Below, one piece after another: positions 427-63,212 of a stretch of DNA of 64,000 bases. The position numbers and the translations under genes were made by a program. Origin of the DNA: Liolophura sinensis (Eukaryota > Mollusca > Polyplacophora > Chitonida > Chitonidae); NCBI RefSeq assembly GCF_032854445.1, contig NC_088304.1, positions 18,301,704-18,365,703 on the forward strand, written 5' to 3'. The stretch's first letter is position 1. Every line of letters starts with the position of its first letter. Below the pieces are notes generated by a model. It had not been told where the DNA came from. It ran no database searches and worked only from the letters and a program-made list of their open reading frames with translations.

Positions 427-800
427 CACAGGCAGCCACATGGACTCAGTGCTCAGTGCACATGCAGTCACATGCACTCAGTGCTCAGTGCACATGTAGC
501 CACTTGTGCTCTGTGCTCAGTGCACATGTAGCCTCATACACCCGGTGCTCAGTGCACATATTGCCAAATGGACTCAGTGCTCAGTGCACATGTAGCCACA
601 TGCGCTCTGTGCTCAGTGTAGATGTAGCCTCATACACTCGGTGCTCAGTGCACATGTTGCCAAATGGACTCAGTGCTCAGTGCACATGTAGCCACATGCA
701 CTCAGTGCTCAGTGCACATGTAGCCACATGCACTCAGTGCTCAGTGCACATATAGCCACATGCACTCAGTGCACATGTAACCACATGCACTCAGTGGGTA
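427..800. repeat. Minisatellite, about 30-bp unit, CACTCAGTGCTCAGTGCACATG
   Basis: About eleven imperfect copies built on CTCAGTGCTCAGTGCACATG with TAGCCACATG-type linkers. The array starts about 9 bp past the splice donor of the TBC-like exon 806-890, within the following intron. Open frames across it are repeat-driven and show no protein similarity. Confidence 0.9.
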
Positions 801-805
801 CAAAC

Positions 806-3800
806 CTTGAGTAGGATCTAATACAGGTATAGCTGCCTTATTGTCTTTCTCCAGCATGCGATACAGTTCACTGTAATGCTTATGTTTAATCTGAAATAAA
901 ATGAAGTAGTAAAATGTCAGTCCAGACCCTGCCAGTTTTTAAGTAGTCTAGCCACATTCGTCAAAAGCAGTTTCACTGTGTGTTTCATGGGCAAGTTGAC
1001 ACTATAAAATAACAAAATCCACCTTTATACTGTCCAATATTTTTTATGATTTTCAACATTCTCTGATCACATAAACATGTCTTCAGCAGGATAACTTGCC
1101 TGGATAGTCCACATTTTGCCATATATTAAATTTTTTTTTTTCGAGTTTTATTTTATTTAATTAAAACCCATAAAACAGAAATAGAAACTGTTGTGGCCTT
1201 ACTACTGCATGTTCTACATTCATGAATCAGGAATTTGTCATCATGCATTGCAAAATGGCATTTGCATTTGTCTTGGAGTAATTGGATGGTTATGTTATAA
1301 ACATAATCTTTGCAGACAGAAATGAAAATGAATTTCTTCTGCATTTCAGGCTGACAAGCATGATTGCTAGATGATGAGCTTACTATGGCTGCTCCTAGGT
1401 TTTACTTGGCTGAGTACAGTGTACTTGTTTTCTTCAGATGACTACCGCATGCTCTTAGGAGAACGGTTTACCACCACTACTGTGCATTTATTTATTTGAT
1501 TGGTGTTTTAGGTCACACTCAAGAATGTTTCACTTATAAGACGGTGGTCAGCATTATGATGGGAGAAAACCATGGAGAATCCAGGGGAAACCCCTGACCA
1601 TCTGCAGGTTGCTGATTGCCGGTTGCTTCCAAAATACTGCCAGAGAGCAAGCCAGCATGAACTGGACTTGAACTCACAGCAGTCAATGGGCCCTGTATTG
1701 ATACCAGGGTCATTGTGCTGCACTAGAATGCTAACCACGTCCCACCCATCCCCACTATACAAGCCATATACATGTAGTTTACCTGATACTGGAACTGAGG
1801 CACTATCAGCTTCACGCCATGAGTTTGTAACACAGATTCCAAGCCACTTGTCTGTAAGAACAGGAAATATTAGCAAATATAAACTAATTAAAGTCAAAAA
1901 TACACAGGCAGAAATATTAAAGAAGCATAGAACAAATTGTTTAATTGTTTAAGCACCTAAGTCAATGTCCCATCTACAGAATATATAGGTCTCCAACATG
2001 AATATGCTGTTAGGGTTTAATGTCATATTGAGAGTGATAGACTGCAGGTGTCACAGATCGAATGCAGGTGTCACAGATCGAATGCAGGTGTCCCAGATAG
2101 AATGCAGGTGTCAGAATGCATGCAGGTTACACAGATAGAATGCAGGTGTCACAGATAGTATGCATGTGTCATGGGTCACCTCTATCAATCATTTTCAACA
2201 CCTTACCGAAGTGCACTCCCGCAGGCGCTCCCCTAACAGAATGAACATTGTAGCCATCACAGCAGACAGAAGCTCGTCAGAAAACCCAGGTGTGTCCAAG
2301 CCAATCATGTACTGGTCCCAGATGTACAACAGTGTTTCTGCATTCAGGTAGCCTGTGTAACACAAACATCAGAGAATCTAGGTGTGACCAGACCTTGTAC
2401 TGTTCCCAGACGTACCACAGTGTCTTAATATTCAGGTGTAACACACACATCAGAGAATCCGGGCATGACCAGACCTACCATGTACTGATCCCAGATGTAT
2501 AACAGTGTCTACACATTCAGATGTAACACAAACATCAGAGAATGCAGGTGTGACAGACCTACTATGTACTGATCCCAGACGTACAATAGTGTCTCTACAT
2601 ACAGGTGTAACACAAACATAAGAGAATGCAGGTGTGACCAGATCTACCATGTACTGTTCCCAGATGTACAACAGTGTTTCTACATTCAGATGTAACACAA
2701 ATATCAGAGAATGCAGGTGTGACGAGATATACCATGTACTGTTCCCAGACGTACAACAGTGTCTCTATATTCAGGTGTAACACAAACATCAGAGAATGCA
2801 GGTGTGACCAGACTTACCATGTACTGTTCCCAGACATACAACAGTGTCTCTATATTCAGGTGTAACACAAACATCACAGAATGCAGGTGTGACGAGATAT
2901 ACCATGTACTGTTCCCAGACGTACAACAGTGTCTCTATATTCAGGTGTAACACAAACATCAGAGACTGCAGGTGTGACCAGACCTACCATGTACTGATCC
3001 CAGGTGTACAACAAAATCTCCACATTCAGATGTAAAACAAACATCAGAGAGTGCAGGTGTGAGCAGACCTACCATGTACTGATCTCAGATGTACAACAGT
3101 GTCTCCCTCTACCAAAATGGAACCAGGTAAAATTCACTCTAAACTGAAGTCACACAAACATGTGGCAAGGTAACACAGGAAGCTGAGCTTCGTTAAGCGA
3201 AAACTTTGCCAGTCTTAAGTTTACAACGCACAGAAATCAGAAATTAAAAAATCAGAGAAATGCTTGCCAAAGGTTACTTCTTGTTTACCACATGTAGTTA
3301 GTGCTGACCAGTAACCAGCCTTAAGTTTAAGCAGAATTTATAGCTACATGTACCAAGCAGTTCACCAAGATTTTCATCTCCAGTATCATACCAAAAAAGA
3401 TGACTGATGTCTATATTTAATTCTTTTTGAATGCCACACCCACAAAGTTTACACTTATACGATGGACACTGGTTTTAGGGTGGAGGAAACTGGAGAAGCT
3501 GGTGTAAGCCACTGACCTTACTGTAACTCTTTCACATGTTTGCAAGGAGTTTATTTAAGCATTTTCTGAGAGCATTATTCTGTGTTGACTGATAAAATTA
3601 TACTTTTCTTAAAGCCCTGAAATTGGCCAATTCAATCAATGTAGTTTTGTCTCCAAAATCATATTAAAAATTTATATAAATTGCAGTGAAAGCTGCTCTT
3701 TTATAAACGAAAAGGTTGAGGAATCAGAATACACCGCAAGTTACATGTGGTCACATAATACATGTACATGTGTACTGACGGATCCAAGTAACCTACCCAC

Positions 3801-6800
3801 AAACATAGCTCTGATGACTGGAAGGATGACAAACTTTAACCCGTCCACAAACAGTCCATGACCTGCTGCTTCTGTCGTGATGATTTTATCTGGAGGGAAT
3901 CAGAAATCATAGATATACACAAAATTTTTTCTTTATCTGAGGGGCCTTTGCTGGCTTAATGATAAAGAAGAAGTCACTGATTTAGAAGATGGTTGTGACT
4001 TGCGTAAATCCAGCATTGTTTACATTCATGCACCAGTGGGTGGTACTTCATGTATCTCTGCGAAATAAGCAGTAAATGTTAATGTTTTTAGTTTGTTTAT
4101 TGAGTTGTTCATTAAGTAAAATTATTAATCAAATTTCGCCCCCCCAAAAAAAAAAATGCTGGGAATTTAGGCAACTGGCAAATAAACAAAGTCACAGGGT
4201 TTGAAGAGAACCAGACCAGGTAGCAGTCCAAAAAATTTTCAAAGGGTCTGTGAAAACTATCGGTATCATTTGTTTACATATTTGGTTTAGAATAGTAGTG
4301 AGGAATAATTTTTGGTCGGGTTTATTTAGGGAACAGGAGTTCCCGGGGTAAACCATCGACCTTTACCCAGTTACTGATGAACCATGTTGTCAACTACGGT
4401 CACCACGGTGGCAAGACCCCATGAACAGTGGTAGAGGATGTACCTACAAGTTCCTTGTCCAAGGACGGGTTTGAACTCGTGCCTCATGTATCCTAGTGAC
4501 TAATAGGAGGAGCACAGGGCCATGGTATTTTCCACAATAATCTTTATAAGCTATTACCTTGGGTTGTGACAAACTGCTTAGCGATGTCTTTGGCTAATTC
4601 TGGGTCTTGTTCCTCTATTATCCTGGCTACTCTCTCTGTGAAGCCTGTCACCTCTGTATCACGTGACTGTGACGGGATAACAAATACAACACAAGGGTAT
4701 ATGTACAGGTACATAGCATGTCTCTTTCTACATCAGAATGCATAATTAATTCCTGATAATGACATCGCTCTGTACAGAATCAGCACATCTTAAGGAATTT
4801 GGAGAAGTATAATGTGTCCACAGGGCACTGATACATGTACATTCCATGAGTAGTGTTACATGAAGGACTCATTTAGCTTGATACTGGCTAAAAGTGATTT
4901 CCTTATATATTACATAACTTACCAGTGGAACATATGTATTTATTTGATTGGTGTTTTACCACGTACGCAAGAATATTTCACTTATACGACAGGGTGGTTG
5001 GAAACCAGGCAGCACCAGGGGGAACCCACCAGTGGAACACAAGATAGAGATATATTATAGGAGCTGACAAGTTCAACAGGAACAGGGGTAGAGTAATTCC
5101 TCAAGCTTTTTGCATGTTTTCAAGATGTTTATTCAAGCATAGGCCTATTCAGAGGGGAATTATTTTAATGTAGATTGATAAAGTTATATTTTTGCGAAGC
5201 TTTGAAATTGGCAAATCCAATCAATGTAGTTTTGTCTCTAAAACAAGATTAAAAAAGTGCATAAATTGCATTTAAATTTGCTCTTTCATATGGAAAAAGG
5301 TTGAAGAATTAGAGTAATCATAGTTATATATTTATTTATTTGATTGGTGTTTTACTCCATACTCAAGAATATTTCACTTATACGACGGCGGCCAGCATTA
5401 TGGTGGGTGGAATCCGGGCAGAGCCCAGGGGAAACCCACGACCATCCGCAGGTTGCTGACAGACCTTCCCATGTAGAACGGGAGAGGAACCCACCATGAG
5501 TAATCATAGTAAAGAGAAAATAAAATAATGTGAGCAGAGAAGTAGTTTGATAGCCCAAAAAGGGCAGAGAAGTGAAGTTTGGTCTCAAACGTTTGAAGCA
5601 AGGTGAGAAGTGAAGTCTGGCCTCAGAGCCCAAGAGCAAGGTGAGAAGTGAAGTCTGACCTCAGAGCTCAGGAGCAAGGTGAGAAGTGAAGTTTGATCTC
5701 AAACGTTTGAAGCAAGGTGAGAAGTGAAGTCTGGCCTCAGAGCCCAAGAGCAAGGTCAGAAGTGAAGTCTGGCCTCAGAGCCCAAGAGCAAGGTGAGAAG
5801 TGAAGTCTGGCCTCAGAGCTCAAGAGCAAGGTCAGAAGTGAAGTCTGACCTCAGAGCTCAAGAGCAAGGGGAGAAGTGAAGTCTGGCTTCAGAGCCCAAG
5901 AGCAATGTCAGAAGTGAAGTCTGACCTCAGAGCTCAAGAGCAAGGGGAGAAGTGAAGTCTGGCCTCAGAGCCCAAGATCAAGGTCAGAAGTGAAGTCTGA
6001 CCTCAAACCCCAAAAGTAAGGTGAGAAGTGAAGTCTGGCCTCAGAGCCCAAGATCAAGGTCAGAAGTGAAGTCTGACCTCAGAGCTCAAGAGCAAGGGGA
6101 GAAGTGAAGTCTGGCCTCAGAGGCCAAGAGCAAAGTCAGAAGTGAAGTCTGACCTCAAACCCCAAAAGCAAGGTGAGACGTAAAGTCTGGCCACAGAGCC
6201 CAAGAGCAAGGTAAGAAGTGAAGTCTGGCCTCAGAGCCCAGGAGCAAGGTGAGAAGTGAAGTCTGGCCTCAGAGCCCAGGAGCAAGGTGAGAAGTGACGT
6301 CTGACCTCAGAGCTCAGGAGCAAGGTGACAAGTGAAGTCTGACCTCAGAGCCCAGGAGCAAGGTGAGAAATGAAGACTGACCTCAGAGCTCAAGAGCAAG
6401 GTGAGAAGTGAAGCCTGGCCTCAGAGCCCAGGAGCGAGGTGAGAAGTGAAGACTGACCTCAAAGCCCAGGAGCAAGGTGAGAAATGAAGACTGACCTCAA
6501 AGCCCAGGAGCAAGGTGAGAAATGAAGACTGACCTCAAACCCCAAAAGTAAGGTGAGAAGTGAAGTCTGGCCTCTGAGCCCAGGAGCAAGGTGAGAAGTG
6601 AAGACTGACCTCAAAGCCCAGGAGCAAGGTGAGAAGGGAAGTCTGACCTCAGAGCCCAGGAGCAAGGTGAGAAATGAAGACTGACCTCAGAGCTCAAGAG
6701 CAAGGTGAGAAGTGAAGCCTGGCCTCAGAGCCCAGGAGCGAGGTGAGAAGTGAAGTCTGGCCTCAGAGCCCAGGAGCAAGGTGAGAAGTGAAGTCTGGCC

Positions 6801-9800
6801 TCACAGCCCAGGAGCAAGGTGAGAAGTGAAGTCTGACCTCAGAGCCCAGGAGCAAGGTGAGAAGTGAAGTCTGGCCTCAGAGCCCAGGAGCAAGTTGAGA
6901 AGTGAAGTCTAGCCTCAGAGCCCGGAGCAAGATGAGAAGTGAAGTCTGGCCTCAGAGCCCAGGAGCAAGTTGAGAAGGGAAGACTGACCTCAAAGCCCAG
7001 GAGCAAGGTGAGAAGTGAAGTCTGACCTCAGAGCCCAGGAGCAAGGTGAGAAATGAAGACTGACCTCAGAGCTCAAGAGCAAGGTGAGAAGTGAAGCCTG
7101 GCCTCAGAGCCCAGGAGCGAGGTGAGAAGTGAAGTCTGGCCTCAGAGCCCAGGAGCAAGGTCAGAAGTGAAGTCTGGCCTCACAGCCCAGGAGCAAGGTG
7201 AGAAGTGAAGTCTGACCTCAGAGCCCAGGAGCAAGGTGAGAAGTGAAGTCTGGCCTCAGAGCCCAGGAGCAAGTTGAGAAGTGAAGTCTGGCCTCAGAGC
7301 CCAGGAGCAAGTTGAGAAGGGAAGTCTGACCTCAGAGCCCAGGAGCAAGGTGAGAAGTGAAGTCTGGCCTCAGAGCCCAGGAGCAAGGTGAGAAATGAAG
7401 ACTGACCTCGAAGACCAAAAGTAAGGTGAGAAGTGAAGTCTGGCCTCTGAGCCCAGGAGCAAGGTGAGAAGTGAAGACTGACCTCAAAGCCGAGGAGCAA
7501 GGTGAGAAGTGAAGTCTGACCTCAGAGCCCAGGAGCAAGGTGAGAAATGAAGACTGACCTCAGAGCTCAAGAGCAAGGTGAGAAGTGAAGCCTGGCCTCA
7601 GAGCCCAGGAGCGAGGTCAGAAGTGAAGTCTGACCTCAGAGCCAAGGAGGAAGGTGAGAAGTGAAGTCTGGCCTCAGAGCCCAGGAGCAAGTTGAGAAGT
7701 GAAGTCTGACCTCAGAGCCTGAATCCAGCATGTAGCCTGGCCTTGTGCTCATGAATGACAGGAACTCCTCCACCAGCAGGGTCACAGTTTTGGCAGGGGC
7801 GGGGTCACGTCTGACAGAACACAAGAGGCTCATCAACATAAACATTGTTAAGGATCATGGAATCTTGGATCATTTGATACCAGAATAAGTCTCAGCTAGT
7901 ACAGCCGAGATTGTCTGCTACATTAAGCAATATTTATTAACAGATAACTGATGAAGTACTACAATAGGATGAGAGCACTAAAAAAAAAGACAAAGCTGCA
8001 ATGTTGTTATTGATGAATCTGCTTATCTGTACCTCGCACAAAGCTAAAGGTTCAGCATGTTAGTCAAACAGTCTACTGATATACAAAAAAATAAATATAT
8101 AAATATATTACTTAAACTAGTGCATTTCCACTGTGTGTAGTAAGGCATTCATACCTTTCACTCATATTACTGAAGATCTTTGATTTCTATAACTTTCATT
8201 ACATGAATATAATGTTTTTAAAATTTATGTTCAAATATTGCAGAAAATGTGACTGTCAGAAAAATCAAAATTATTTCACTTCTATTTCTCTGCAAAATGT
8301 ATCACTAAAGATCTTTGATCTGTGTTTGTCGAATATCATCTTTTTAAACTATATGTACAAAAACATGTACTGAAGAAAATGTGATTGTTGGGAAATCAAA
8401 TAAAAATATAATCTTGTATTTGTAATTCTTGGCGACAACTGACCTTGAGAGTGTGGAGGAGGTCTCCAGTACCAGAGGCACAACTAACATGTAGTCAATG
8501 TCTGGTAGACGATTGGCTGAGCCAGACAATGCATGGTGATAAGACAATACTGCCTTCATCGCATAAAACGCGCCTACAATAGAAGATGTAATTCCATAGG
8601 GATAAAAAGTCTCATTTAAACATCTCAATAAATACATGAATGTGCACTGAAAGGTAATTTTTTTTTTATTTTATTTCCTTGCAGTGTCAGGGATCAAAAT
8701 GTTTGGTCATGTATTCATTATCAACAGATCAAAAAAAAAAACCCCATTAACCTCAAATTGAGCAGCAGTCATCATAAAGATGACTTTTTACTGAGTAAAT
8801 ATTCATAATTTCAGACTCATAAATGATTGATTTCATCCACTTATAAGTTGTCATCACAATGATATGCATGGAACCTAAAACATTTCATGTCTTAAAAGCA
8901 CACTGGGTGACTTCAGTGTTTGTTGAGGTAATCACTCTAAAGAGCTTGATATAGCAAACCTTGCTACTTCACCTAGTATGATATATTTGATACTTCACCT
9001 AGTATGATATATTTGATACTTGACCTAGTATGATATATTTGATACTTCACCTAGTATGAGCTACCTATAGGATAAATGATATCACTAACATTGACAATGA
9101 ACAATAAAAACAAACCATCACTGACCTACAGACCCCTTGATGGTGCTGAATGTAGGCTCTGAGCTGAGCAGGTTTTCACACTTCTGGGAGATCTCCAGGT
9201 CAAATGGAGAGATGGCCTTGCGTGGATGTTTGGACATCACATCTACATACTGCTTCCTGACTGGGGGCAGAAAATACATTTTGACATTTAATTCTGGGTT
9301 AACGCTATACTCAAGAATTGTTCACTTATCCAATGGCTGTCAGTTTTATTGGTGGAGGAAAATTGAGTGCGTGGGATAAACCAGCAGCCTTTGGCAAGTT
9401 AATGATAAACTTTCCCCACATTTGACGTATAGATATGCACACCATGCTTTTCGCTAATCATCTCCTAACCTACAGATCATACATGTAGCTGGATAAAAAA
9501 TCCATGAATTCATCTCTGATTACTACTCACTTTTAGCATTACTCAGGAAGAGTTTCCATGTCAGGCTCCTCAGTGAGGAAGGCAACGGCTGGTTCAGACA
9601 CACGTGTAGCTTTGTCCTCATCTCTGGCCATCTCCTCAGCAAGCTGACTGCTCCTTCTTCAGCATTTGAGACGATCAAATCAGTTTTTGTCCCGATGGGA
9701 TGGTCCTCCATCAACTCTCGGCTTACCTCCTCATTCAAGTGTTGATCCAGTAGCACTGAGACCTGAGAATACAGGCTACCAAAAACACCACCTGAAAAAT

Positions 9801-10305: not shown

Positions 10306-10339
10306 CTGCAAGTAAAATACACTGGGACATCTTAAACAG

Positions 10340-10790
10340 TTCAACATGCTAACAAGGTATCCTCCCATAAGAAAAAACTTAGGAGTAAATACATCCCTAA
10401 AATTGTACCATAATAACAAGGTACCCTGACATAAGAAAAAAATGAGGAGTAAACACATCCCTAAACTTGTACCATGATAACATGGTATCCTGCCATAAAA
10501 AAACTTAGGAGTAAATACATCCCTAAAGTTGTATCATGAGAACAAAGATATCCTGCCATAAGAAAAAAAATTTGGAGTAAACACATCCCTAAATTGGAAC
10601 AATGATAACAAAGACATCCTGACATAAGAAAAAACATAAATACATCGGTAGTGTTCTACCATGATAAAAACATACCCTGCAATAAGAAAAAAATCAGGAG
10701 TAAATACATCCCTAAAGTTGTATCATGATAACAAGGTATCCTGCCATTAGAAAAAACTTAGGAGTAAATACATCCCTAAAGTTGTATGGC
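10340..10790. repeat. About 64-bp minisatellite upstream of an exon acceptor, seven copies
   Basis: Units carry AGGAGTAAATACATCCCTAA and AACAAGGTATCCTGCCATAA joined by A-rich runs. On the minus strand each unit has a pyrimidine-rich tract, then TTATGGCAG/GATACC, which resembles a splice acceptor. The array ends about 35 bp from the real acceptor (TTACTTGCAG/GAATGG) of exon 10167-10305. Confidence 0.9.
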
Positions 10791-15400: not shown

Positions 15401-18400
15401 CTCCCACCAATGCAGTCACTGTGAGTTCAAGTCCAGCTCCTGCTGGCTTCCTCTCCGGTTGTAAGTGGGAAGGTCGGCCAGCAACCTGCGGATGGACATG
15501 GGTTCCCCCTGCCTCCCCCTGGGCTCTGCCCAGTTTCCTCCCACCATAATGCTGGCCGCCGTCGTATAAGTGAAATATTCTTGAGTACGGCGTAAAACAC
15601 CAATCAAATAAATAAATATATAAAATACATAATCAGATGTCAACAGAGTATAGTAGGAGAGAAAGTATGGGAGCCAAGGTGGAACTCATAAAATTCGTTT
15701 GAAAAAACAGAAGGATATCCTTCTGGAAAAGTTTCAGTTTCAGCATCAATAATAATATTTTCAGGACATTCATTTGCCCCCAAAATGCACTATTATAAGT
15801 GACCGGCCCGGATGGCACAATTGGTAGATCGCCCGCTCCTGGGTCGAGTCACACCTAAGACTTTAAGAGAGGAAGTTGTAATTTCCTCTTGGCATTCAGC
15901 ATGAAGGGGATAGTGCAACAACTTGTTGACCCGTATCAGTATAATGGCTCGGTCGGGTCAGGTTACTCACCTTCGGTAAGGTGTCTCAGTGAAGCAGCAC
16001 TAGATAAAAGAGCGGTGGAAATCTGTCCTGCAACAAGGAAGCACATTACATACACCCTAAGGATTCCTTCGTCGTCATATGACTGAAAAATTGTTGATCC
16101 CGACGTTATACCCCAAGCACTCACTCACTCACTCACTATTTTAAGTGAATATTTAGGTCCTTTACAATATTTTCTTCACTAATTCATGTATTACAGGCTT
16201 AGCAGATTCTTGAGATTAAACATTGATAAATGGCGTGTTTCATTTGTGCTCTGTGGTATGAGGTTTTAAAGAGGACATTGCCTTGTGACTTAAAAGTGCT
16301 CGAGAAAGTTTAAAAAATGCACTTCATTATTCTTTGGGTTTAGCTTTGTGGGGGGCTTTACAAAAGCGTGTGAATTTTAATTTAAAACACCCGTTAGCTT
16401 TACATATAAGTAAATAAATTTGAGATTACTGTATTTCACCTGAAGTTTAGCATTTTTGAAATGACATGTTTTGCTTGTTTCTGATGCTGTCATCCACCTT
16501 GTAGGGCCACTTATCAGTTTTTTGTGAAATTTGATAAAATTCTAGGAGTTCCAGAAAACTTTAAAAGCTGACATCAAAAGTATCATTATAATTAAAGGCT
16601 TTGCATGCTTTTGAAAGTGTATATCTGCATACTAATCTTTAAGTGAATTACAGTATCTTAATTCTTCTAAAATTTGGGACAGATATTAGTAGTGATCAGA
16701 GTAGAATATTACATTTCTTTACCAGCCGTTTAGAAAAGTAAAGATATGAGTATGTTGTTCACTAGATGGCCTAACCATGTGAGGAAAAAGAAAACTCAAT
16801 ATTGCTGCTAGAATTACATATATACTGTATTGGCTAAAATGAGCATACCAGGTGTCTCAAATTTTTAGAAGAAATTGGGTAATTAATGAATCATTATGTA
16901 TATTAATATATGTTTGTAATACATTCCTGATTTTGGTTTAACATTTTCAGATCTAAGTGATCTTGTCATTATTGTTCGAAGTCAACCAAACCCATTCCAT
17001 GCCAAGAGGGCCCAAGTCTTCAAAGATCATATCAACCAACAGATCAACAAGGATGCGGAGAAGGTTTGATGACACTTAAATCGTTTAAACTGCACCACGA
17101 AGCAATTGTCTTTTTGGAAAAAAAAATAAACAACAACACTAGACCAAATGTTTATAAGTAAGAAACAAAAAGCATACTTGTTTATTTTAGTGATGTGGGG
17201 CAACTGAGATATTACAGTTATTTATTTATTTATTTTTTTGATTGGCGTTTTATGTTGTACTCAAGAATATTTTTCTTATGCGACGGCAACCAGCATTATG
17301 ATGGGAGGAAGCTGGGCAGGGCCCGGGGGAAGCCTAGGGCCATCCACAGGTTGCTGGCAGACCTTCCCATGCATGGCCGAAGAGGACTTCCCACTTTAAA
17401 GTAAAACCATGTAACCACTTGCAAGCTATCAGTTTTATCCAATCAGGTGCAAGTTATTCCTGTAACATGAGAATGCTCCTTTAATTTCCCATGGCATGAT
17501 AGGTATTTACATTAAATATCAATTTATGGGAACAGTGACAGAATTTTGATTTGAAGGATTTTATGAAGGTCAGACTTTCTCTTCAGCATGGCAGGTCACT
17601 GTAACACTATTAAAACTTATCACGTCTTTGATTTTGTGTAGCTCTATCTTGTGAACATGCTTTTATTTATTCAGTTGTCTTTGGTGCTTAACCCAGATAA
17701 AAATAGTGCCTCAGAAAAATGTTCAGGAAGTGAACACACAACTGTGTTGTGCAGTTAAAGTGGACACAGTGATGACTTACTCAACTGTATCATTTGGGAA
17801 AAGTAACAAAAAAAATGTTTAAATGTAATTTACTTTTTGTTATGTATTTTTCAACTGACCACATTGAATGCATTGGTCAAATTTATAAATTTTTAGGGCA
17901 AGAGTTAAGCGTGGATATATCAGACTGTAGACAGTACATTGCTCTGCTTGTTATGTAGTGTATGCCCTGTAGGATAGTGTTACTATGGTAATGGTTTGTC
18001 TTTCTATGTGTACATTTGTTATGTAGTATATGCCCTGTAGGATAGTGTTACTATGGTAATGGTTTGTCTTCCTGTGTGTACATTTGTTATGTAGTATATG
18101 CCCTGTAGGATAGTGTTACTATGGTAATGGTTTGTCTTTCTGTGTGGACAATGAGTATGTATATGCCCTATAGGATAGTGTTACTATGGTAATGGTTTGT
18201 CTTTCTGTGTGTACATTTGTTATGTAGTATATGCCCTGTAGGATAGTGTTACTGTGGTAATGGTTTGTCTTTCTGTGTGTACATTTGTTATGTAGTATAT
18301 GCCCTGTAGGATAGTGTTACTGTGGTAATGGTTTGTCTTTCTGTGTGTACATTTGTTATGTAGTATATGCCCTGTAGGATAGTGTTACTGTGGTAATGGT

Positions 18401-21400
18401 TTGTCTTTCTGTGTGTACATTTGTTATGTAGTATATGCCCTGTAGGATAGTGTTACTGTGGTAATGGTTTGTCTTTCTGTGTGTACATTTGTTATGTAGT
18501 ATATGCCCTGTAGGATAGTGTCACTGTGGTAATGTTTTGTCTTTCTGTGTGTACATTTGTTATGTAGTATATGCCCTGTAGGATAGTGTTACTATGGTAA
18601 TGGTTTGTCTTTCTGTGTGTACATTTGTTATGTAGTATATGCCCTATAGGATAGTGTCACTATGGTAATGGTTTGTCTTTCTGTGTGTACATTTGTTATG
18701 TAGTATATGCCCTGTAGGATAGTGTTACTGTGGTAATGGTTTGTCTTTCTGTGTGTACATTTGTTATGTAGTATATGCCCTGTAGGGTAGTGTTACTATG
18801 GTAATGGTTTGTCTTTCTGTGTGTACATTTGTTATGTAGTATATGCCCTGTAGGATAGTGTTACTTTGGTAATGGTTTGTCTTTCTATGTGTATATTTCA
18901 GAAGAATCAGCCAGATGTTTATCTGTTACATGAAACCTGGCCAGAAGTTGGATCATGGACCATTTTACCCCTCATAACAGAGTAAGCCATCTGTATCAGT
19001 CATTCAGTCATTCATTGCCTGCTGTTGTATTGGCCAAATAAATGTGTATTCACTTTGCCCAATGCTTTGTTTCAGATTTGCTGACAAATTTTCCCTTAAA
19101 AAGTGGTTATTAATTTGTGAAGAAGAGACGAGAGTGGACCTCTTAGGGTTAACGAAAGTCTTACAGAGGTTTGACCCAGACAAGGTTTGTCGTTCATTAT
19201 TTGATAGAATTTAAGAGTCTCACTGTGGTAACAAAACTGATATGAAATAAAAAGGGGTCTCCGCATCCTCTTGGTTAGTGTGATATAGTGCAGCGTAATG
19301 ACCCAGGAGCCCCTCACCAATACGGTCACTGTGAGTTCAGCTCATGCTGGCTTACTGTCTGGTCATACGTTGGGAGGCCAGCAGATAACCTACGGATGGT
19401 CGCTGGTTTCCCCTTGGCTCTGCCTGGTTTCCTTCCACCATAGTGTTGGTAGCGGCCGTGATAGTACAGTTTGTAGAGTGTCCTCAAAGTATTTTGACAG
19501 AGACAGTATAGTGTAAGCTTTGTTACTGCGTGAAGTTTGTTCTGACTGCTTGTTGGTGCAGCCATTGTAAAACAAATCACTCTCCACGCCCATTGACGTT
19601 TGAATAATTTTGACGTCGCCTGAGGCACTGGGTTCTTGGTGTCGGAACTAACCAACATTATGAATCAGAAAAAGTGTTCTAAGTGCATTTTCTTGGTAAT
19701 AACATGGACGTTCAACTTGTCAGTGTGTAGAGCTTGGACTGGTACGTATCACTGTCTAAAGGCAATTTTGGTAGAGAGTATGACTGATTTTACAGACAGC
19801 TGAATATAGGCGACTCTGTAAAAGAAATAGACTATAGTCATTTACTTACCTACATTGCCCAGCGGTTAGTGAGCCTACCAATGTGATTGCTGTGAGTTTA
19901 TGTGGGAAGGTCTGGCAGCAACCTGTGAATGACTGTCGGTTTTCTCTGGACCCTGTCTAGTTTCATCGCAGCATAATGCTGGCTACTGTTGTATAAGTGA
20001 AATATTCTTGACTATGGGGTGACACCAATGAAATATATCAGTTAATCCCAATTTCCGATTTCCATGTGGCAAATTGCACGATTTTCACCTGTTTCAGGAT
20101 CAGTTTCTTGGTCAGGCTCTCCAGGATTCCCAGCCTGTCATTACCCACCATTTTGCCTTCGCTGAAAAGCCCTCAAGTTTCTCCTATCCAGATTTTGCTG
20201 CTGGCATTGTACTCAGTCTCACACTGATTAAAAGGTTTGAATTATTGATCACTTTTTTGTACGATTTTATTGCTGTACATCTCCATGTTTATTGGACCGA
20301 TGCTGGCTCATTTGTCTAAAACATTAGCGTCACAACAAAAAAGTTTGAGTATTTCTGACCAATCAGATTACAGACTTGAATCAAGCCTTTGCTACTTTGG
20401 CTTCATCTTTAAATCACTGGATTTGTCACATCCTCCAAATAAAGGTGGATAGGTTATGTTCATTGTCGTATTGTAAGCTGTAATAATTACACAAATTTCA
20501 AGTTTTAAGAAAGGTACAGTTTGTACATTAAATCAAACATTCTTTTAAGTTGAAAGCTTTCATCCTCTGTGGCCCCTACAATACGATTTCCAAACACCAA
20601 GCTGTTTTATATGTACTTATATATGTTGTGATGTAAAGTGGGATTGCTTTGATAGAAATTTATTAAAAATGCAGTCAGTTAGTACTATTTTGGTTTAATT
20701 TGGGTGTGTTTAGAATTGAAATAAAGGCTCGATTTAGACAGTGAAATGCATGAGATTTATGCTGCTAAAATGGACACGCCAATCATTTGGTGGGGAGTGC
20801 ACAGAGTTGAAAGTGTGTACATGTAGGTGTTCTCTGTAATCTCTGAGGTCTTTAATAATAACAAAATAACGTGTGTACATGTGGGTGTTCTCACTAATCT
20901 CTGAGGTCTTTAATAATAACAAAATAACGTGTGTACATGTGGGCGTTCTCTCTAATCTCTGAGGTTTTTAATAATAACAACACCAAAGTCCATTGTACAT
21001 GGAGTAATATTCATGTGGGTGCACTTCCTTGTTCTGGATTTATTTCATTTATTTGATTGGTGTTTTATGCCTTAAACAAGAATATTTCACTTATACGACT
21101 ACGGCCAGGATTATGGTGGGAGAAAACCGGGTCCTGGGAAACCCATCCTTGTCCTTGAGGTATGAGTGTAGATACTGCTTGAATGTCATGATGCACACAT
21201 GTTACAGGCGTTATTGACTGTTGTTGCTTCTTCTGGTAATTTCCCCTAGATTATCCACAGAATGGGCGATACGTCCGCAAGCGGGCATGGGAGGAGATTT
21301 CACCATAGACATTCAACATGAGGTATGTCATCAAACCCGTCCTGTAAACACAGCTGCATACACAATTTACTGTATTTCACTTTTTTTTTTAAAAAATGCA

Positions 21401-24400
21401 CTTTCAGAAGCATAAAGGCGTTTTAATGATACTTTTGATGTTACTCAACGCTTTAACTTTTCTGAAATTCTAAGAAATTAATCACTCTTTACAAAAAATT
21501 TTTAAGTGGGCATGTATAAAGTGGGCATGTATAAAGTGGGATTGCATAAAGTGGGCATGTATAAAGTGGGATTGCATAAAGTGGGCATGTATAAAGTGGG
21601 ATTGCATAAAGTGGGCATGTATAAAGTGGGATTGCATAAAGTGGGCATGTATAAAGTGGGATTGCATAAAGTGGGCATGTATAAAGTGGGATTGCATAAA
21701 GTGGGCATGCATGTATAAAGTGGCATTGCATAAAGTGGGCAGGCATGTATTAAGTTGGAATGCATAAAGTGGGCATGCATGTATTAAGTTGGAATGCATA
21801 AAGTGGGCAGGCATGTATTAAGTTGGAATGCATAAAGTGGGCAGGCATGTATTAAGTTGGAATGCATAAAGTGGGCATGCATGTATTAAGTTGGAATGCA
21901 TAAAGTGGGCATGCATGTATTAAGTTGGAATGCATAAAGTGGGCATGCATGTATTAAGTTGGAATGCATAAAGTGGGCATGCATAAAGTGGGCATGCATA
22001 AAGTGGGCATGTATAAAGTTGGCATGTATAAAGTTGATGAATCAGTGAGAACCAAACCAAAGGTGCCAAAGATGAAAATTGCTAAACTTTACACTGCCTC
22101 ATGAATCATAACCCTCATAAAACAAAAGGAAAAAAACAAAACAAAATTTATTTCATTCTGTTTCCATGCTTGATTGTTAACTTGTTACATAGTGTACAAC
22201 TGCCAAATTCTTTTCTTTTCTTTTTTTTCAGTTCGCATTGTTCCTGTGGAATGATGGGAAGGGTGTTCGTCTGACTGATGTACCCGAGCTGTGTGCAGGG
22301 GACCGGGACAATGATAGATGTGTGACACATTATGCTGTCCATTTCCCAGACTGTGTAAGCCCCATTGGTCTTGTGTTAACAGGGCCATGTCTAGAAAAAT
22401 ATTCAAGGCTCTTATCCCAAATGTTAAAAGATGTGACTGCATAAAGAAATTTTATAGAATGAAGTTCAAAATGACAAGAGAATTTTTGAGAAATAAAGAA
22501 ATTTGTATAAAAACATGTTACTGGTAAACAATCATATTTTTGTTCAGTTTAATTGTCAGTTGTAATACAACATCATTAGTTTGGGAGCCAGACGTTTTCC
22601 GAAAGTGTTACGGCTCTAGACATGGCCCTAAAGAATGCGATCTTTTATTAGATAGAGGACATGGTTATAAAGACTTGTTTGTTTGGGGTAAAAAGTCTAG
22701 AAAATTAATCTAGAGATTACTTACTTACTTAAAGAATTAATTACCTTTTGCATACCTTGTTTAGTCTTAAAATAATATTTTCAAATTAATTAATATGTGT
22801 TAATTGCTGAATAATATCCCGATTGCAACATGCATTAAATAAATGATGTAAAACTTTTCCAAAAGTTAAATTTCTGATGTTAGTTAAAAAAATCGCTTTT
22901 GGACAGGGTGATTTTTCAGTAGTTTCATGCTGTTGTAGTTTTCCCTGCTTTCCTGAACCCAACAATCTTGTCATGTTAGTGAAAGGCTCATAATAAAGTC
23001 TGGTGTTTATGTACTCCAGCCTAATCATTTAAAACCTATGGGGGCCTCCGTGGCTCAGTTGGTTAGCGTGCTAGCGTAGCGTAATGACCCGGGAGTCTCT
23101 CACCAATGCGGTCGCTGTGAGTTCAAGTCCAGCTGATGCTGGCTTCCTCTCTGGCCGTACGTGGGAAGGTCTGCCAGCAACTTGCCGATGGTTGTGGGTT
23201 TCCCCCGGGCTCTGCTCGGTTTCCACCTACCATAATGTTGGCTGCCGTCGTATAAGTGAAATATTCTTGAGTACAGCATAAAACACCAATCAAATAAATA
23301 AATTTAAAACCTATGTACCTGTACAAAAGTGGCATGAAGAATAATTCACTTGGGTACATGTAATGTTGGCTGGATTTGTCTCCCTTTGTGGTTGTAAGTA
23401 AATCCTGATCTCCTGTTCCATATAGGGGGAGCCTGTGCCTAAGGAAGATCTGTTTGTGGCAGTTAAAACCTGTGAAAAGTTTCACAAAGACAGAGGTGAG
23501 ACCCTCGCTCTATATCATCATTACACATGTACATTTACACCCCAGGGCAAGTACACACTCATTTGTTAATGTATATGTGGTTAGTTTATTAATCCTTTGT
23601 ATTCTTTCCAGTACACTCATTGATACAAATGAAGAATTTTTCATTTGCCAATCACTAAGCTACAGGTCTGTTGAATATAACAGATTTTCCACTTGTATAT
23701 AGACCAGTTAGTTTATGACATAGAATCCCTAATCCCTAAGTGCATTTAACTCCTTGTGATGTCCCTTTCCACCAAGTTTAGAAACAAAATAAATAAGTTT
23801 GTTAACAAAATAAATAAGTTCATAAACAAAATAAATAAGTTTGTATTGCTGTAATGGTAAAAAAATGAAATGAAATACAAATAATTCTATTCAAGAGAGT
23901 TAAACAAAAAAGTGAAACTGTTTTTGGATACAGTTTTCCACGATGTATCTGATAATTGTGACTTTTTTTTTTTTTTTTAATGCGTTAATTCCTCAACCTA
24001 TTCGTATAAGAAAGGGTAACTTTCAATTCTATGTACGCACCTTTTTGATTTGATTTTGGAGACAAAATTACATCCTTTGGGCTCGCCAGTTTGTTCCTCT
24101 CAAATATTTAATGATATCTGTCTATGATGGAAGAATTGCAGTATTACCTTTCCTTTTGGATAGACATACCAGTATTGTGAGCAGCTGGGATCTCTACATG
24201 TACATTATATTGGCTTATAACCATTTTTTAGAGAAATCATTAATGTCAGATATCGTGTTCAAAATATTCCCATGATGCCATTTTTTAAATTTTTTAGCTT
24301 GTGCATCATTACATAAATGAAATTCTTCAACAGAGCATTAAATACCAATCGAATAAATAAATAAATGATGTATGTGTATTATTTTTGTGGTGATTCAAAA

Positions 24401-33892: not shown

Positions 33893-33897
<5 letters not shown>

Positions 33898-33937
<40 letters not shown>
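33898..33937. repeat. (AT)n microsatellite
   Basis: A near-uninterrupted run of about 16 AT dinucleotides. Confidence 0.95.
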
Positions 33938-53742: not shown

Positions 53743-53795
53743 ACTAATGCTTTCCTTTGAGCTGTTCACATTACATCTTCCTATAGGGAACACGT
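53743..53795 (-). other. AKAP1 5' UTR segment with likely upstream splice acceptor
   Basis: On the minus strand TTGACATTCTGCAG/ACGTG places a plausible acceptor at 53796-53797 upstream of the start codon, implying a non-coding first exon further up. The frame stays open through this stretch but has no ATG. Confidence 0.45.
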
Positions 53796-55469: not shown

Positions 55470-55552
55470 TGACGTTACAATGGCCGGATTGGCTCGCCTT
55501 CTATATTAGACAGGTGCTTTCATATTGCATATTTTTCACATTTTCTTCGACG
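55470..55552 (+). promoter_or_regulatory. Candidate ULK proximal promoter / 5' UTR
   Basis: Within 85 bp of the start codon lie a CRE-like TGACGTTA (about 55470-55477), GGCCGGAT (ETS-like) and an inverted CCAAT (ATTGG, 55488-55492). The order and distance are typical of a TATA-less housekeeping promoter, but the transcription start is unknown. Confidence 0.4.
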
Positions 55553-58500: not shown

Positions 58501-61500
58501 ATTGGTGTTTTTTTGTCGTATTCAAGAATATTTCATTTTATTTATATGATAGTAACCAGCATTATGGCTGGAGGACAAAACCAATGAACATCTGCACGTT
58601 ACTGGCAGACCTTCCCACCATACAGTGCTAAATTCTGCTTCTAACACTTGATATCATGCATCAGCCTGCATGCAATCAAATTTAATACATTCACATTTTA
58701 GACACTGTGTTACCAGTAGTTTACCTAGGGATTACATGGTCATGTACCTGCCACAAAAGTACATCGTATACATGTGCATGTAACCTGTACATGTATATAC
58801 AGGTATAGTGTAATAATGCACATGTTCACACACAAGTTGTGCACCTGTCACATCACTGTTTTGCATATGTGTACACATATGTACCTTTATGCATACCCTA
58901 GGGCAGGGATTGTACCTTTATGCGTACCCAAGGGCAGGGATTGTACTACATGTACAGGTACCTTTGCACTTGGAAGTGCAGAATGTTATGTGAACATGCT
59001 TTGAGCTTCCTAATCTGATTAAACCCACTGTGTATCCAATGTGCCGGGTTATGTCATAGGTCTGCACACACATGGCAAAATTCCCAGCCAGCTGCTTAAT
59101 TCATAGAAGGGGGGGTCATATAGGTGGGGAGATGAGTTGACATCAGAGCAAGATGCACACACAAACATCAAACAGGTCAACATCAGTGATGTGTACATTG
59201 AGGAGTGCATGTGTAGTGAAATCCTCCCCCATGGCTTTGGAGACAAATTAAGTTTTGTCTACATTTTGCCAAAAGCATTGCATACATGTACATGTTGCCA
59301 AAGGATTGCAGATTTACTTCGTGACATGTGGAACAGAATGGATTGGAAAGCTGCTGGGCCTATATGTACATGTGAATGTACATTAATTGAATTATCAATT
59401 TTATAAACTTAGGTAGCTTTATTTAACATTTGAAAGCATATACTTTTAGTTTTAACATGGGGCTTGCAGATGAACATGCATAGATGTACTTTTGTTATAC
59501 ATGTGTTAATGTGTAAACTTAATATAGGTTTTGGAGTAATTAAATCTGCTGTGATAATAAATCAGTAGTCGATTAATTTCTCTCCACCACATTGTCTTAG
59601 TGACATTAAGCCATATCCATTCATTAAAGATTTATTTGTGGAGTTGAAAAAAACTTTTTTTACTTCATTTGTTGCGAGACTGAAGATCTTCTACTTATAA
59701 TTCTGGTCAGGTTTATGATTGGTGGAAATTGGAGCAAGTGAAGAGAACCATGCACTGTTGTTTTTTTCCCTGAGAAAGCTCCAGGCTTTAAGCTACTGTT
59801 TAGGATACCCAAACTGGATTTGATGATATTGTATACACGTGCATGTACATCGATGTATATAACTCAGATACTTGTATATGAATGGCTAGTGTTTACAAAC
59901 ATTAGCCAAGTCACTCAACAACACACACCTCCACCCCATTCAACCTTAAGAGTTTAATTCTGCCAAGCCATGTCACTGTGGTTTGAGCTGGCAGATTAAA
60001 GACACTCATGTGTAAGCATCATCCCTATATTTAGGTGTGACACTGTTGGTTTGTTTTCATACAAGAGCGGTGATGTGTTGCTAAGTAAATTTACATACAT
60101 ACTGTGGTGTAAGTTTCCACATGGCCAGAGCATTTTGACCTACTTTAATTGTCCACATTACCTTGATCATTGACACACTTTTTTTTGGCTTCTGTGGCCA
60201 ATGATGTCAGTTTATTCAATTCCTGAATCTCTTATGTATGTTACAAGTATGTGTGTCTACTGGTCTCTACTTCAATGTAGATAAGTATATGACATGCAAG
60301 TTTACAAATATAATCTGTATGTGAATTACGAGCTTAGAATAATACACAGCTCCTGATTTCTACTTCACTTCAGTTTAAGTGCAGAAGCACTGGAAAATAG
60401 TTAACCTAAAATGATAAAGGGTGACTGTGTATTCATGTTAGACCTAAGTGAGAAGCAAGTCAGGTGGGACTGTATAACCCAGTGATCTAGAAACCTTGTT
60501 TTTGTATATATGTACATGTGTCTTTCAGTTATTTAGTCTTGCTCTGGAATGAGTTCACCGTTGGTTGCTGTTGTTTTGGTCACATGATAGACTTCTGCTT
60601 AAAGCATGCTTCATAAGAGGCTCTTGGCATGATTACCCTGGTTTGTGCCTAGGCCTTCAGACAGGTGTGCATACTTACATTTACCTGTCTTAAGTTGAAA
60701 GCTTCCTGAACTCAGCCTTGCTTAATGCTCAGCATATAGGCGAGGAATGGAACAAGAACTGGTCAGCGCAGCATGGTTGGGTGAAACATGGTGTCTTAGG
60801 CAAGAGATTCCAGTGGGCCAGCATTCAACAAATATATATACATGTACCCATGTAAACAATTAAACACACAAACAAATCCTTAACTCAGGAGGCAATGTAA
60901 ATAAAGAGAAAAGTAATGTCCAGTCAGGGGCTGGTACACAAGTCACTGTGACTGGTACACAAACACAGCCACTACTGTCCATACATGTACATGTACAAAT
61001 GGTGCCTGTACATGTACACAAGTCACACGTCACTGTGACTGGTACACAAGTACACTGTGACTGGTACACGAGTCATGGTACTGGTACACAAGAACACTGT
61101 AACTGTAAATACACAAAAAAAAAAGCCCTCTACTTTACATGTAGGCCTAAATGTAGCATGGTGTAGAATTCATGAAGATAAAAAATTGGATAGGTTGTCT
61201 TTAGTGTGTCTTGACCTGACCAGTCAGATTCAGGATCATATGTTTAAAGGTAATTACTAATATACGTTATGTATGTGGCCCCCTGTACATGTAAAATCTG
61301 TGAATGTTGCTTTAATAATGGTGTTTTACTGTGTGGGGTGGATCATCAGATCCTGTTTAATGATGACATGTATGATGTAGGTGTTCCCTCCACACCTATC
61401 GATTGGACTGATAAACATGAAAGTATACTTGTATGTATGATTGGTAATTAGGTCAGTCATGTGATGTTCATTGGCATTTTGTCCTGGGTTGACCCAGTGC

Positions 61501-63212
61501 AGTATTATTTGTTTATAATAATATAGGTTATCTTGAGTTGTATTGCCCTTGGTTGTATAAAACAGGATATTGTCACAGTTTTTATAGCGTTCTGTAATTC
61601 TGTCAGTGTGTTCCAAGTAGGAAAGTAGCATTTTGGTTGTATTTTTTTTTTTTCAGATTGCTTTGTTGATTTTTTGTTTCTCCATCCAAGTACATGTATA
61701 ATACAGTTGTAATTTTAAGGCATCTACATTGTATTGTAGTATTTATAAATTGTGTGGTTTTATACACTGCATGTGAGGGTACTTGTACTTGTACTGTATC
61801 TGCATATACATGTATATAGTTAATTCATTAAGGTGTTAACTAAAGGCACAGGTGCTTGCCAGGTACTAAAGGTAACAGCAGTGTCAGATATTACTGTGCT
61901 GTCTACTCGTTGGCATGTCCCAGATTCCAGCCAATCAGACTTGCTGATTACTGAGTCACACTTTTTTGAACTTGAGCAGGATTTCTTGCACTGATGCAAT
62001 ATCAAATTCCTTGTGTAAATAAATATACACTGTTCAGGTACATGTAATGAAGCTGTCTTTTATATTTAGTAGAACACTGCACAGACATATTTACCTGGAT
62101 TCTCTGACCTATTTCTGTGAATGTTGATCTGCTTGGCTTTATTTTGAATGCATGAGCATGTCTGGAACAAAAAATATGATGTGGGTCCTAAGATTTTTGG
62201 TATCATTATCAAGGTACAAATAAATAAACCTCTTTCAGGTTGGTATAACGTTAGCTCTTCTCTAGCTCAGGCACATTTATGCCCATGACTGTCATGTACA
62301 TGAGAAAAAGGAAATGAACCAATATAGGCATTACATTACTACATCATGAAGTTAATAAATAGTATAAATATTTAATATACATATGCACTTACACAGGTAG
62401 TAGTGTCATAGATACAGGTGACAGATTCCAAACTTGTCATACTTATAAATATACTTTTAACAGTATTAATAAACTTTTGTGTGAAGTGTTACCTGTCCTA
62501 TACATACACATGGCACGATGCTCTGTTGATTTCATGAAGCCATGTTTGACTCAATTAAGTGAAAATTTATAGTTTCATTATGAATTAAATTAATACTTAG
62601 TAAAAGTGTTTTTGTTCTTGCTACTTGAGTTCCATTGGACTTGAATGGCATAAAATCTCTAATTGTTTTTTCTCCATTGAAAGTTTTTTATTCTCATCTA
62701 CATGTAAACACAGGAGTAAGAGTTGACACCATCTTCCATGTTGGTACAATCTTCCTATTGGACTTGGAATAGCATAAAGTCTCTAATTTGTTTTTTCTCC
62801 ATTGAAAGTTGTTTATTCTAATCTACATGTAAACACAGGAGTAAGAGTTGACACCATCTTCCATGTTGGTGCAATCTTCCCATTGGACGTGGAATAGCAT
62901 AAAATCTCTAATTGTGTTTTCTCCATTGAAAGTTGTTTATTCTCATCTATATGTAAACACAGGAGTAAGAGTTAAGGTCATCTTCCGTGTTATGTAAGAA
63001 ACACATAGTTTTATCATGAAATTTGCCAGTTAGAATTTGATGATGTATGTATTATAAATGTTGTATACTATACTTTTGTGAAACTGTTGATTTATAAAAT
63101 ATTTTAAAAAATTTTTCAGAGACCTGACCATACTGTGGCTATCAAAAGTATAACAAAGAAGAACTTGGCAAAATCACAGAACCTCCTCAGCAAAGAGATT
63201 AAAATTCTGAAG
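55553..63212 (+). CDS. ULK1: ULK1/ULK2 (Atg1) autophagy Ser/Thr kinase, first two coding exons
   Basis: Exon 1 is 55553-55642 (30 residues, donor AAG/GTAAGG). Exon 2 is 63120-63212 (31 residues, acceptor TTTTTCAG, donor AAG/GTGAGT). Both are phase 0; the gene continues past the window. Exon 1 reads [20 protein letters not shown], the ULK glycine-rich loop at residues 16-23. Exon 2 gives VAIK with catalytic Lys39, then [19 protein letters not shown] with the helix-C Glu at 56. Spacing from this Lys to Glu equals that in human ULK1. Known role: it phosphorylates ATG13, FIP200 and other autophagy initiation factors. ULK1 and ULK2 cannot be told apart here, and an invertebrate may have one gene for both. 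The intervening intron is about 7.5 kb. Confidence 0.93.
56510..56835. mobile_element. Fold-back (inverted-repeat) element, about 320 bp
   Basis: The left arm GACCACCTTTTGGTATTTAT and inner AATGTCATAAATGAGGATGT are matched in inverse order and orientation by ACATCCTTATTTAGAACATT and ATAAATACCAAAAGTTGGTC on the right. The arms are over 100 bp and imperfect. This is the structure of a fold-back MITE. No second copy was seen in the window. Confidence 0.65.
57205..57430 (+). repeat. Dispersed repeat shared with 8675-8955
   Basis: GGGTCAAAATGTTTGGGCAT, GACCTCAAATTGTGCC, CATCATAAAGATAA, ATCCACTTCC and TTGTTGAGGTCATCACTTTG, in the same order and orientation as the copy in the TBC-like gene's intron. 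Confidence 0.6.
58115..58294 (+). mobile_element. SINE family 1 fragment, plus orientation
   Basis: GTCCAGCTTATGCTGGCTTC, GTGGGTTTCCCACGGGCTTT, ACATGTATAAGTGAAATATT and AATCAAATAAATAA. The head is missing. Confidence 0.87.
58312..58340. repeat. (ATGT)n-type microsatellite
   Basis: GTATGCATGTATGTATGTAT and following ATGT/GCAT tetranucleotides. Confidence 0.9.
58494..58624 (-). mobile_element. SINE family 1 fragment, minus orientation
   Basis: ATTTGATTGGTGTTTTTTTG, ATTCAAGAATATTTCATTTT, AACCAGCATTATGGCTGGAG and TTACTGGCAGACCTTCCCA. It lies about 200 bp from the opposite-oriented fragment at 58115. Confidence 0.85.
58884..58944. repeat. Short duplication, two copies of about 33 bp
   Basis: CCTTTATGCATACCCTAGGG and CCTTTATGCGTACCCAAGGG, each followed by CAGGGATTGTAC. 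Confidence 0.85.
60925..61100. repeat. Degenerate ACTGGTACACAAG tandem repeat
   Basis: Repeats of CACTGTGACTGGTACACAAG with variable spacers, plus ACATGTACATGTAC words. Open frames across it are compositional. Confidence 0.8.
62628..62995. repeat. About 122-bp tandem triplication near ULK exon 2
   Basis: Three copies of a unit with ATTGGACTTGGAATAGCATA, TTCTCCATTGAAAGTTGTTT, CTACATGTAAACACAGGAGT and CACCATCTTCCATGTTGG. The array ends about 125 bp before the acceptor of ULK exon 2. Confidence 0.93.

What the first reader, a model, noticed from the sequence alone, without database searches (positions are those of the whole stretch)
427..63119. Minisatellites cluster at splice junctions across four genes
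Arrays lie beside exon borders far more often than seems likely by chance. In the TBC-like gene: 9 bp past the donor at 806; 45 bp past the donor at 2207; across the acceptor at 2352; on the donor at 7711; 70 bp past the donor at 9126; and 35 bp before the acceptor at 10305. In B3GLCT: into the acceptor at 18902. In AKAP1: 75 bp before the acceptor at 37885. In ULK: 125 bp before the acceptor at 63120. Units differ in sequence and length (20-122 bp), so this is not one repeat family. It suggests a process that repeatedly duplicates short segments at exon-intron borders in this genome.
Basis: partly seen in the sequence, partly recalled or inferred. Interest (0 to 1): 0.75.

Follow-up and report, generated by a model that had tools for sequence, protein, structure and literature searches.

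The report
Splice-junction minisatellites in a chiton
In this chiton genome short tandem repeats are very common inside genes, and some of them copy the very border between an exon and an intron, but they seem to land there about as often as elsewhere in introns, so no special border-copying process is needed.

Summary
All nine arrays exist at the stated places. The window is from the chiton Liolophura sinensis. The clustering replicates in independent loci: at 319 other exon edges the rate of meeting an array in the first 25 bp is 6.6 times that beyond 100 bp. Of the 14 arrays met there, 12 straddle the splice junction: the repeat unit includes exon bases. These resemble the 'mirages' of amphioxus. 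Straddling arrays occur at 14 of 379 junctions. If duplications are born uniformly and purely exonic ones are lost, straddling is expected in proportion to unit length. Against that null the excess is small: 12 seen, 7.0 expected (P 0.03), all on donors (9 v 3.8), none on acceptors (3 v 3.2). A genome-wide motif test finds no donor enrichment in tandem arrays (ratio 0.93) and depletion of the acceptor motif (0.60). Best reading: a minisatellite-rich genome with junction-straddling births tolerated at donors and partly purged at acceptors. A dedicated border-duplicating process is not supported. The structures are real, but of a kind already described in amphioxus and human genes.

The parts
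425..796 (-). 32-bp array, 10 bp downstream of the donor of exon 807-889 (TBC-like gene); no exon sequence found in the unit
2036..2171 (-). 20-bp (58-bp) array, 36 bp downstream of donor 2207
2355..3105 (-). 85-bp array at acceptor 2352: the units copy the start of exon 2208-2352 (exon bases about 5-47 align; by eye to about base 75) plus the last bases of the intron; the 7 recognised copies lack the acceptor AG
5597..7719 (-). 38-bp array (about 56 copies) straddling donor 7711 by about 8 exon bases; GT intact in 26 of 55 recognised copies; the stretch 6600-7700 matches only this place in the genome
8961..9059 (-). 26-bp array, 67 bp downstream of donor 9126
10345..10786 (-). 64-bp array, 39 bp upstream of acceptor 10305
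17948..18898 (+). 68-bp array ending 3 bp before acceptor 18902 of the B3GLCT gene; no exon copy found
37968..38514 (-). 60-bp array, 81 bp from the acceptor of the last AKAP1-like exon
62630..62991 (+). 125-bp array, 129 bp before acceptor 63120 of the ULK gene, in a 7.5-kb intron
20813..20980 (+).
21504..22034 (+).
23774..23842 (+).
58880..58946 (+).
61024..61105 (+).
2208..2352 (-). exon of the TBC-like gene whose acceptor side is copied in array 2355-3105
7712..7809 (-). exon of the TBC-like gene whose donor side is copied in array 5597-7719

Best explanation
The chiton genome gives birth to minisatellites (tandem duplications of roughly 12-140 bp units) at a high rate throughout the gene regions sampled, with no special aim at splice sites. 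Duplications lying wholly in coding exons are mostly removed by selection. Duplications in introns are tolerated, and so are many that straddle a junction, because the exon-proximal copy remains the authentic splice site. At donors the first site transcribed is used and the decoy copies lie downstream, so straddling is nearly neutral. At acceptors the decoy AGs lie upstream of the authentic site, so straddling is partly purged or survives when the AG is lost. Shown: arrays are abundant in the loci sampled; one searched genome-wide is private to its locus; junction copies exist, most with intact GT/AG; their numbers fit this geometry to within a factor of about two; one acceptor motif is depleted in arrays genome-wide. 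Inferred: the selection steps, the splice-choice rule and the neutrality of donor straddling. No RNA or population data were available.
For: Arrays passing the filter cover 35,170 of 184,516 bp of 16 myosin loci and 7,381 of 64,000 bp of the window. The 38-bp array matches only its own locus. Paired introns: 7 straddling arrays seen, 4.4 expected from unit length and intron slack, P 0.13. Independent edges: acceptors 3 seen v 3.2 expected; non-straddling arrays at 1-25 bp, 2 seen v 2.1 expected. If only the straddling arrays whose exon part aligns to the array better than shuffled exon are counted, 7 of the 12 independent ones remain, equal to the 7.0 expected. Genome-wide: donor motif GGTRAGT, 4444 triples on 191,959 singles against 4163 on 166,803 for the reversed control, ratio 0.93; acceptor motif TTTCAGG 733 on 127,801 against 570 on 59,512, ratio 0.60. 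In the window's acceptor array the AG is gone in 7 of 7 recognised copies.
Against: Donors in the independent sets show more straddling than the null allows (9 v 3.8, P 0.008), and non-straddling donor arrays lean towards the exon (10 of 16 in the nearest third, p 0.016). Non-straddling arrays in paired introns, window included, also lean towards the edges (8 of 32 in the outer tenth, p 0.012). The motif test compares one motif with its reversal, counts matches rather than arrays, covers units of 17-47 bp only, and was not calibrated on neutral motifs; only 27 of 149 independent donors match GGTRAGT, and only 2 of the 9 straddled ones do. Two acceptor arrays keep most decoy AGs (40 of 42 and 12 of 16), against strong purging at acceptors. 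Loss of purely exonic arrays was not measured.
Confidence: 0.62

Rival explanations
1. A donor-focused process: tandem duplications are seeded preferentially at and just downstream of 5' splice sites, for example through co-transcriptional structures or breaks there, and then expand.
For: Independent sets, donors: 9 straddling arrays v 3.8 expected (P 0.008), and 10 of 16 non-straddling arrays in the nearest third (p 0.016); acceptors null. 8 of the 10 straddling arrays in the myosin loci are at donors.
Against: The donor/acceptor split was made after seeing the data. Direct comparison 9 of 149 donors v 3 of 170 acceptors, p 0.07. Set 2 alone has 1 straddling donor of 51. With the stricter exon-alignment criterion 6 independent donor cases remain. 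Genome-wide donor-motif ratio 0.93, where about 1.2-1.3 would be expected if 13-20% of motif hits were true donors and these were 2.4 times as prone (my estimate).
Confidence: 0.2
2. The arrays mark introns newly gained by tandem duplication of an AGGT-containing exon segment.
For: Units often contain AG|GT at the junction. Such intron gain is documented (PMC4974935, listing and start of abstract), was proposed for amphioxus mirages (PMC3087553, passages) and for tandem repeats in human duplicated genes (PMC2812944, passages).
Against: In the 39 array-intron pairs no array reaches both splice sites of its intron; at least 59 bp of other sequence remains on the farther side. The model predicts duplicated segments at both ends.
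Confidence: 0.04
3. The arrays are functional: repeated splice signals or enhancers are kept near weak exon borders by positive selection.
For: Decoy donors stay intact (64 of 65 recognised copies outside the window; copies were recognised by similarity of their flanks, so decayed ones may be missed).
Against: Homogenisation within an array explains intact copies as well. Straddling is erratic (10 of 194 myosin edges), and the window's two junction arrays have lost GT in 29 of 55 or AG in 7 of 7 recognised copies. No RNA was tested.
Confidence: 0.05
4. Purely chance or an assembly artefact.
For: The window list was selective (5 of 14 intronic arrays omitted), and introns are short compared with arrays.
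Against: Replicated in independent loci (9 of 25, p 0.0005; 6.6-fold edge rate). The assembly is from HiFi reads (PMC11068029, passages). Exon copies inside arrays exceed shuffled exon clearly in 8 of the 14 straddling cases.
Confidence: 0.09

Closest known systems
'Mirages' of amphioxus: tandem repeats spanning exon-intron boundaries in Adh3, globin, troponin C and PGBD5 genes (PMC3087553 and PMC3902484, passages seen; the original Canestro et al. 2002 is not held)
   Same: Tandem units that include exon tail and intron head, or intron end and exon head; reported units 10-160 bp; both donors and acceptors; units differ from gene to gene; many copies keep AG/GT.
   Different: Here in a mollusc, counted over 379 junctions (14 straddled) rather than as single genes, and set against a null of uniform birth. 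Normal splicing and length variation, reported in amphioxus, could not be tested here.
Variable tandem repeats at exon-intron boundaries of human genes in segmental duplications (PMC2812944, passages)
   Same: Minisatellites (about 30-bp units on average) lying at exon-intron boundaries; 27 intron modifications reported there.
   Different: There they are variable between recent paralogues and change transcripts, with evidence from RNA. Here no paralogue or RNA comparison was made.
Intron gain by tandem genomic duplication (potato RdRp case PMC4974935; listing and start of abstract)
   Same: Tandem duplication; the AGGT and splice-site link is recalled from that literature and from the passages of PMC3087553.
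   Different: There the duplication creates an intron. Here arrays sit inside existing introns and reach at most one end.
Ordinary intronic minisatellites of molluscs: a 27-bp, length-variable one in an abalone intron (PMC6905558, passages); 9.21% of another chiton genome flagged by Tandem Repeats Finder (PMC11545220, Table 4 seen)
   Same: High tandem-repeat load, many copies, intronic.
   Different: Those passages say nothing of splice junctions; here a share of the arrays overlaps them.

Membership tests
Mirage (amphioxus-type exon-intron boundary minisatellite) | Tandem repeat whose unit spans an exon-intron boundary | tested here: met
   14 of 379 junctions by TRF borders, 2 of them in the window; in 8 of the 14 the exon part also aligns to the array clearly better than shuffled exon, the other 6 rest on about 7-16 exon bases
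Mirage (amphioxus-type exon-intron boundary minisatellite) | Copies carry splice dinucleotides | tested here: met
   144 of 187 recognised copies over 14 arrays keep GT or AG; the window's acceptor array does not (0 of 7)
Mirage (amphioxus-type exon-intron boundary minisatellite) | Normal mRNA is still produced | not testable with these tools
   no RNA data; frames stay open through the modelled sites of the paired myosin introns
Mirage (amphioxus-type exon-intron boundary minisatellite) | Length polymorphism between alleles or within an individual | tested here: inconclusive
   no second copy of window 7720-8940 was found in the assembly, so no allele to compare
Intron gain by tandem duplication | The intron is bounded on both sides by copies of the same segment | tested here: not met
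   0 of 39 array-intron pairs reach both splice sites
Dispersed repeat family or transposon with tandem structure | Same unit at many loci | tested here: not met
   array stretch 6600-7700 matches only its own locus (3 matches). One array tested; the search skips very common words

The most novel reading that the evidence does not exclude
A chiton carries thousands of 5'-splice-site minisatellites seeded by a donor-biased duplication process, each a row of intact decoy donors behind the real one. They would form a genome-wide natural experiment on how the spliceosome picks the first of many identical 5' splice sites.
Probability: 0.17. Interest if true: 0.7.

Novelty: new member of a known kind. 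Interest (0 to 1): 0.4.

Why it matters
Even without a special process, 14 of 379 junctions examined (3.7%) carry tandem copies of their own splice site. That can mislead gene prediction, supplies raw material for alternative exons and introns, and allows a direct test of splice-site choice: many identical donors in a row, of which one should be used. The structure is known from amphioxus and from human duplicated genes; among the papers my searches returned I saw no molluscan case. The work also shows that counts of such arrays need a null that includes straddling duplications.

Tried and rejected
1. Frame hypothesis: the first 12 straddling units included no multiple of three; set 2 added units of 27 and 30 bp (2 of 14 in all), so I dropped it.
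2. GC-driven expansion: arrays 42% GC, other non-exon sequence 37%, exons 45%. Suggestive only, not pursued.
3. Age: copy number of straddling (10) and other (52) myosin arrays does not differ (medians 5.6 and 7.9, p 0.45).
4. SINE insertions as a positional control: 0 events in the first 25 bp over 254 edges, but a higher rate at 50-200 bp (0.7 per kb) than beyond 200 bp (0.2-0.3 per kb). So edge proximity in general is not flat even for SINEs, and part of the decline of array rates with distance may be of that kind.
5. Haplotype comparison: no second copy of the stretch searched.
6. PF00102 exons and the kinase exons were not used: many of the first lie in clusters of similar copies; the second were not needed within the letter limit. 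Set 2 was picked by hand: 75 of 132 kinesin, 23 of 33 TBC and 5 of 57 ubiquitin-hydrolase places, mostly without internal stops. Its flanks are only about 450 bp, so long arrays are cut.
7. Rows dropped: TRF rows with period under 8, score under 60 or length under 50; array pieces with under 25 bp in the intron; 34 of 104 consecutive myosin exon pairs that failed frame or profile continuity, although single edges from them were kept where a site scored well. TRF depends on the strand read: one repeat of locus M11 found on the first strand was not found on the other, which I used.
8. 'TBC-like': Pfam gives no hit for the chained protein at E<=0.001, nor for its core at E<=10.

Full report
WHAT THE WINDOW IS. 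The window lies in an assembly of 632 contigs and 609,464,459 bases as held here. Contig lengths (C1 96,433,062; C4 25,057,479) and the number of scaffolds equal those in the paper on the chiton Liolophura japonica (PMC11068029, passages; its stated total, 609,495,693, is slightly larger). The species name was later corrected to L. sinensis (PMC12441733, whole text). That assembly is built from PacBio HiFi reads. I read the exons of four genes by hand and checked splice signals and frames for 32 of the 34 modelled exons; edges are good to a few bases. B3GLCT is consistent with a Fringe-domain hit, AKAP1 with KH and Tudor hits, ULK with PDB ULK1/2 hits.

CHECK OF THE OBSERVATION. Two copy a junction: 2355-3105 repeats the first part of exon 2208-2352, and 5597-7719 overlaps the donor of exon 7712-7809.

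INDEPENDENT REPLICATION. I took 16 myosin-head loci from a Pfam search, 184,516 bp, found exons with a profile built from the hits and paired 70 of 104 consecutive exons into whole introns. Arrays lie in the outer tenth of the free intron space in 9 of 25 cases (p 0.0005), against 6 of 14 in the window (p 0.0015). A second set of 103 exons from kinesin, TBC and ubiquitin-hydrolase families, 99,782 bp, shows the same trend at lower frequency: 2 arrays within 25 bp of 125 edges. Pooling the two independent sets (319 edges), the rate of meeting an array is 1.83 per kb in the first 25 bp and 0.28 per kb from 100 to 400 (myosin) or 440 bp (set 2), ratio 6.6. SINEs show 0 events in the first 25 bp, though they too are somewhat commoner at 50-200 bp than farther in.

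WHAT THE NEAR-EDGE ARRAYS ARE. Of 26 edge-array cases within 60 bp in the window and myosin loci, twelve straddle the junction by TRF borders. In a 31-bp case the unit is 16 bases of exon tail plus 15 of intron head; in a few others the copied exon part covers the whole 60 bases compared. Set 2 adds two. That makes 14 of 379 junctions: 10 of 179 donors and 4 of 200 acceptors. In 8 of the 14 the exon part aligns to the array clearly better than shuffled exon; the other 6 rest on short exon overlaps, about 7-16 bases. These fit the term 'mirage' used for amphioxus (PMC3087553 and PMC3902484, passages).

THE NULL THAT MATTERS. Adding copies does not shorten the unique sequence between an array and the exon, so nearness reflects where the first duplication occurred (inference). 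If first duplications fall anywhere, some units must straddle a junction, in proportion to unit length, while those wholly inside coding exons are lost. With this null, paired introns show 7 straddling arrays against 4.4 expected (P 0.13), and 21 of 39 arrays straddling or within 100 bp against 14.4 (P 0.009; myosin alone 13 of 25 against 9.0, P 0.04). At the edge level in the independent sets, straddling is 12 against 7.0 (P 0.03): donors 9 against 3.8 (P 0.008), acceptors 3 against 3.2. Counting only the alignment-supported cases, 7 remain (6 donors, 1 acceptor). Non-straddling arrays at 1-25 bp number 2, with 2.1 expected; at donors, 10 of 16 lie in the nearest third of the first 300 bp (p 0.016). 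So there is a small residual lean, mainly at donors, found by a split made after the fact.

GENOME-WIDE PROXY. A motif that occurs three times in a row at 10-40 bp gaps marks an array that contains it. For the donor motif GGTRAGT the genome has 4,444 such triples and 191,959 single hits; for the reversed motif, 4,163 and 166,803. The triple-to-single ratio is 0.93 of the control (0.99 on one strand, 0.87 on the other). For the acceptor motif TTTCAGG it is 0.60 (0.73 and 0.46). The donor motif is therefore not enriched in arrays. The acceptor motif is depleted, as expected if acceptor-straddling births are partly purged, but one motif with one control cannot separate this from sequence context. 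Only 27 of 149 independent donors carry the motif.

MECHANISM. Steps shown: many arrays in the loci sampled, one of them searched and found private to its locus; junction copies; intact decoys (144 of 187 recognised copies over the 14 arrays; 64 of 65 at donors outside the window; recognition by flanking similarity favours intact ones). Steps inferred: uniform birth, loss of exonic arrays, use of the exon-proximal donor, cost of upstream decoy acceptors. In the window's acceptor array none of the 7 recognised copies keeps the AG, whereas two other acceptor arrays keep most of theirs (40 of 42 and 12 of 16), which speaks against strong purging.

PRIOR WORK. The searches of the held library returned junction-spanning repeats for amphioxus (above) and for human genes in segmental duplications, where tandem repeats at exon-intron boundaries can alter splicing (PMC2812944, passages). 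I saw no molluscan case among the papers listed; an abalone gene has a length-variable 27-bp minisatellite inside an intron (PMC6905558, passages). Finds for 'tandem' in PMC11068029 and for 'tandem repeat', 'minisatellite' and 'satellite' in PMC12005716 gave none; a third chiton paper reports 9.21% of its genome from Tandem Repeats Finder in a table (PMC11545220). Most subscription papers are not held, so this is no proof of absence.

VERDICT. The structures are real and worth knowing for gene annotation and for tests of splice-site choice. The claimed process aimed at borders is not supported beyond a possible, modest donor bias.

Noticed in passing
window 27524-27672: A B3GLCT exon seems to read only with one-base frameshifts (hand reading, not tested further); could be an assembly error or a damaged gene.
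   Followed up: no
window, e.g. 51433-51688: A tRNA-headed SINE ending in CAAATAAATAAATA; BLAST with this copy finds 24 pieces in the window. That it is a molluscan SINE is recalled, not tested.
   Followed up: partly
L002, about 5287-6490: Three very similar alternatives of one myosin exon (LEDQI.QANPVLEAYGNAKT) in a row, perhaps mutually exclusive exons of a muscle myosin gene.
   Followed up: no
   Followed up: no
window 46957-49042: A run of medium minus-strand ORFs in a large intron of the AKAP1-like gene, perhaps a decayed mobile element; no Pfam hit for the 6 ORF pieces tested.
   Followed up: partly
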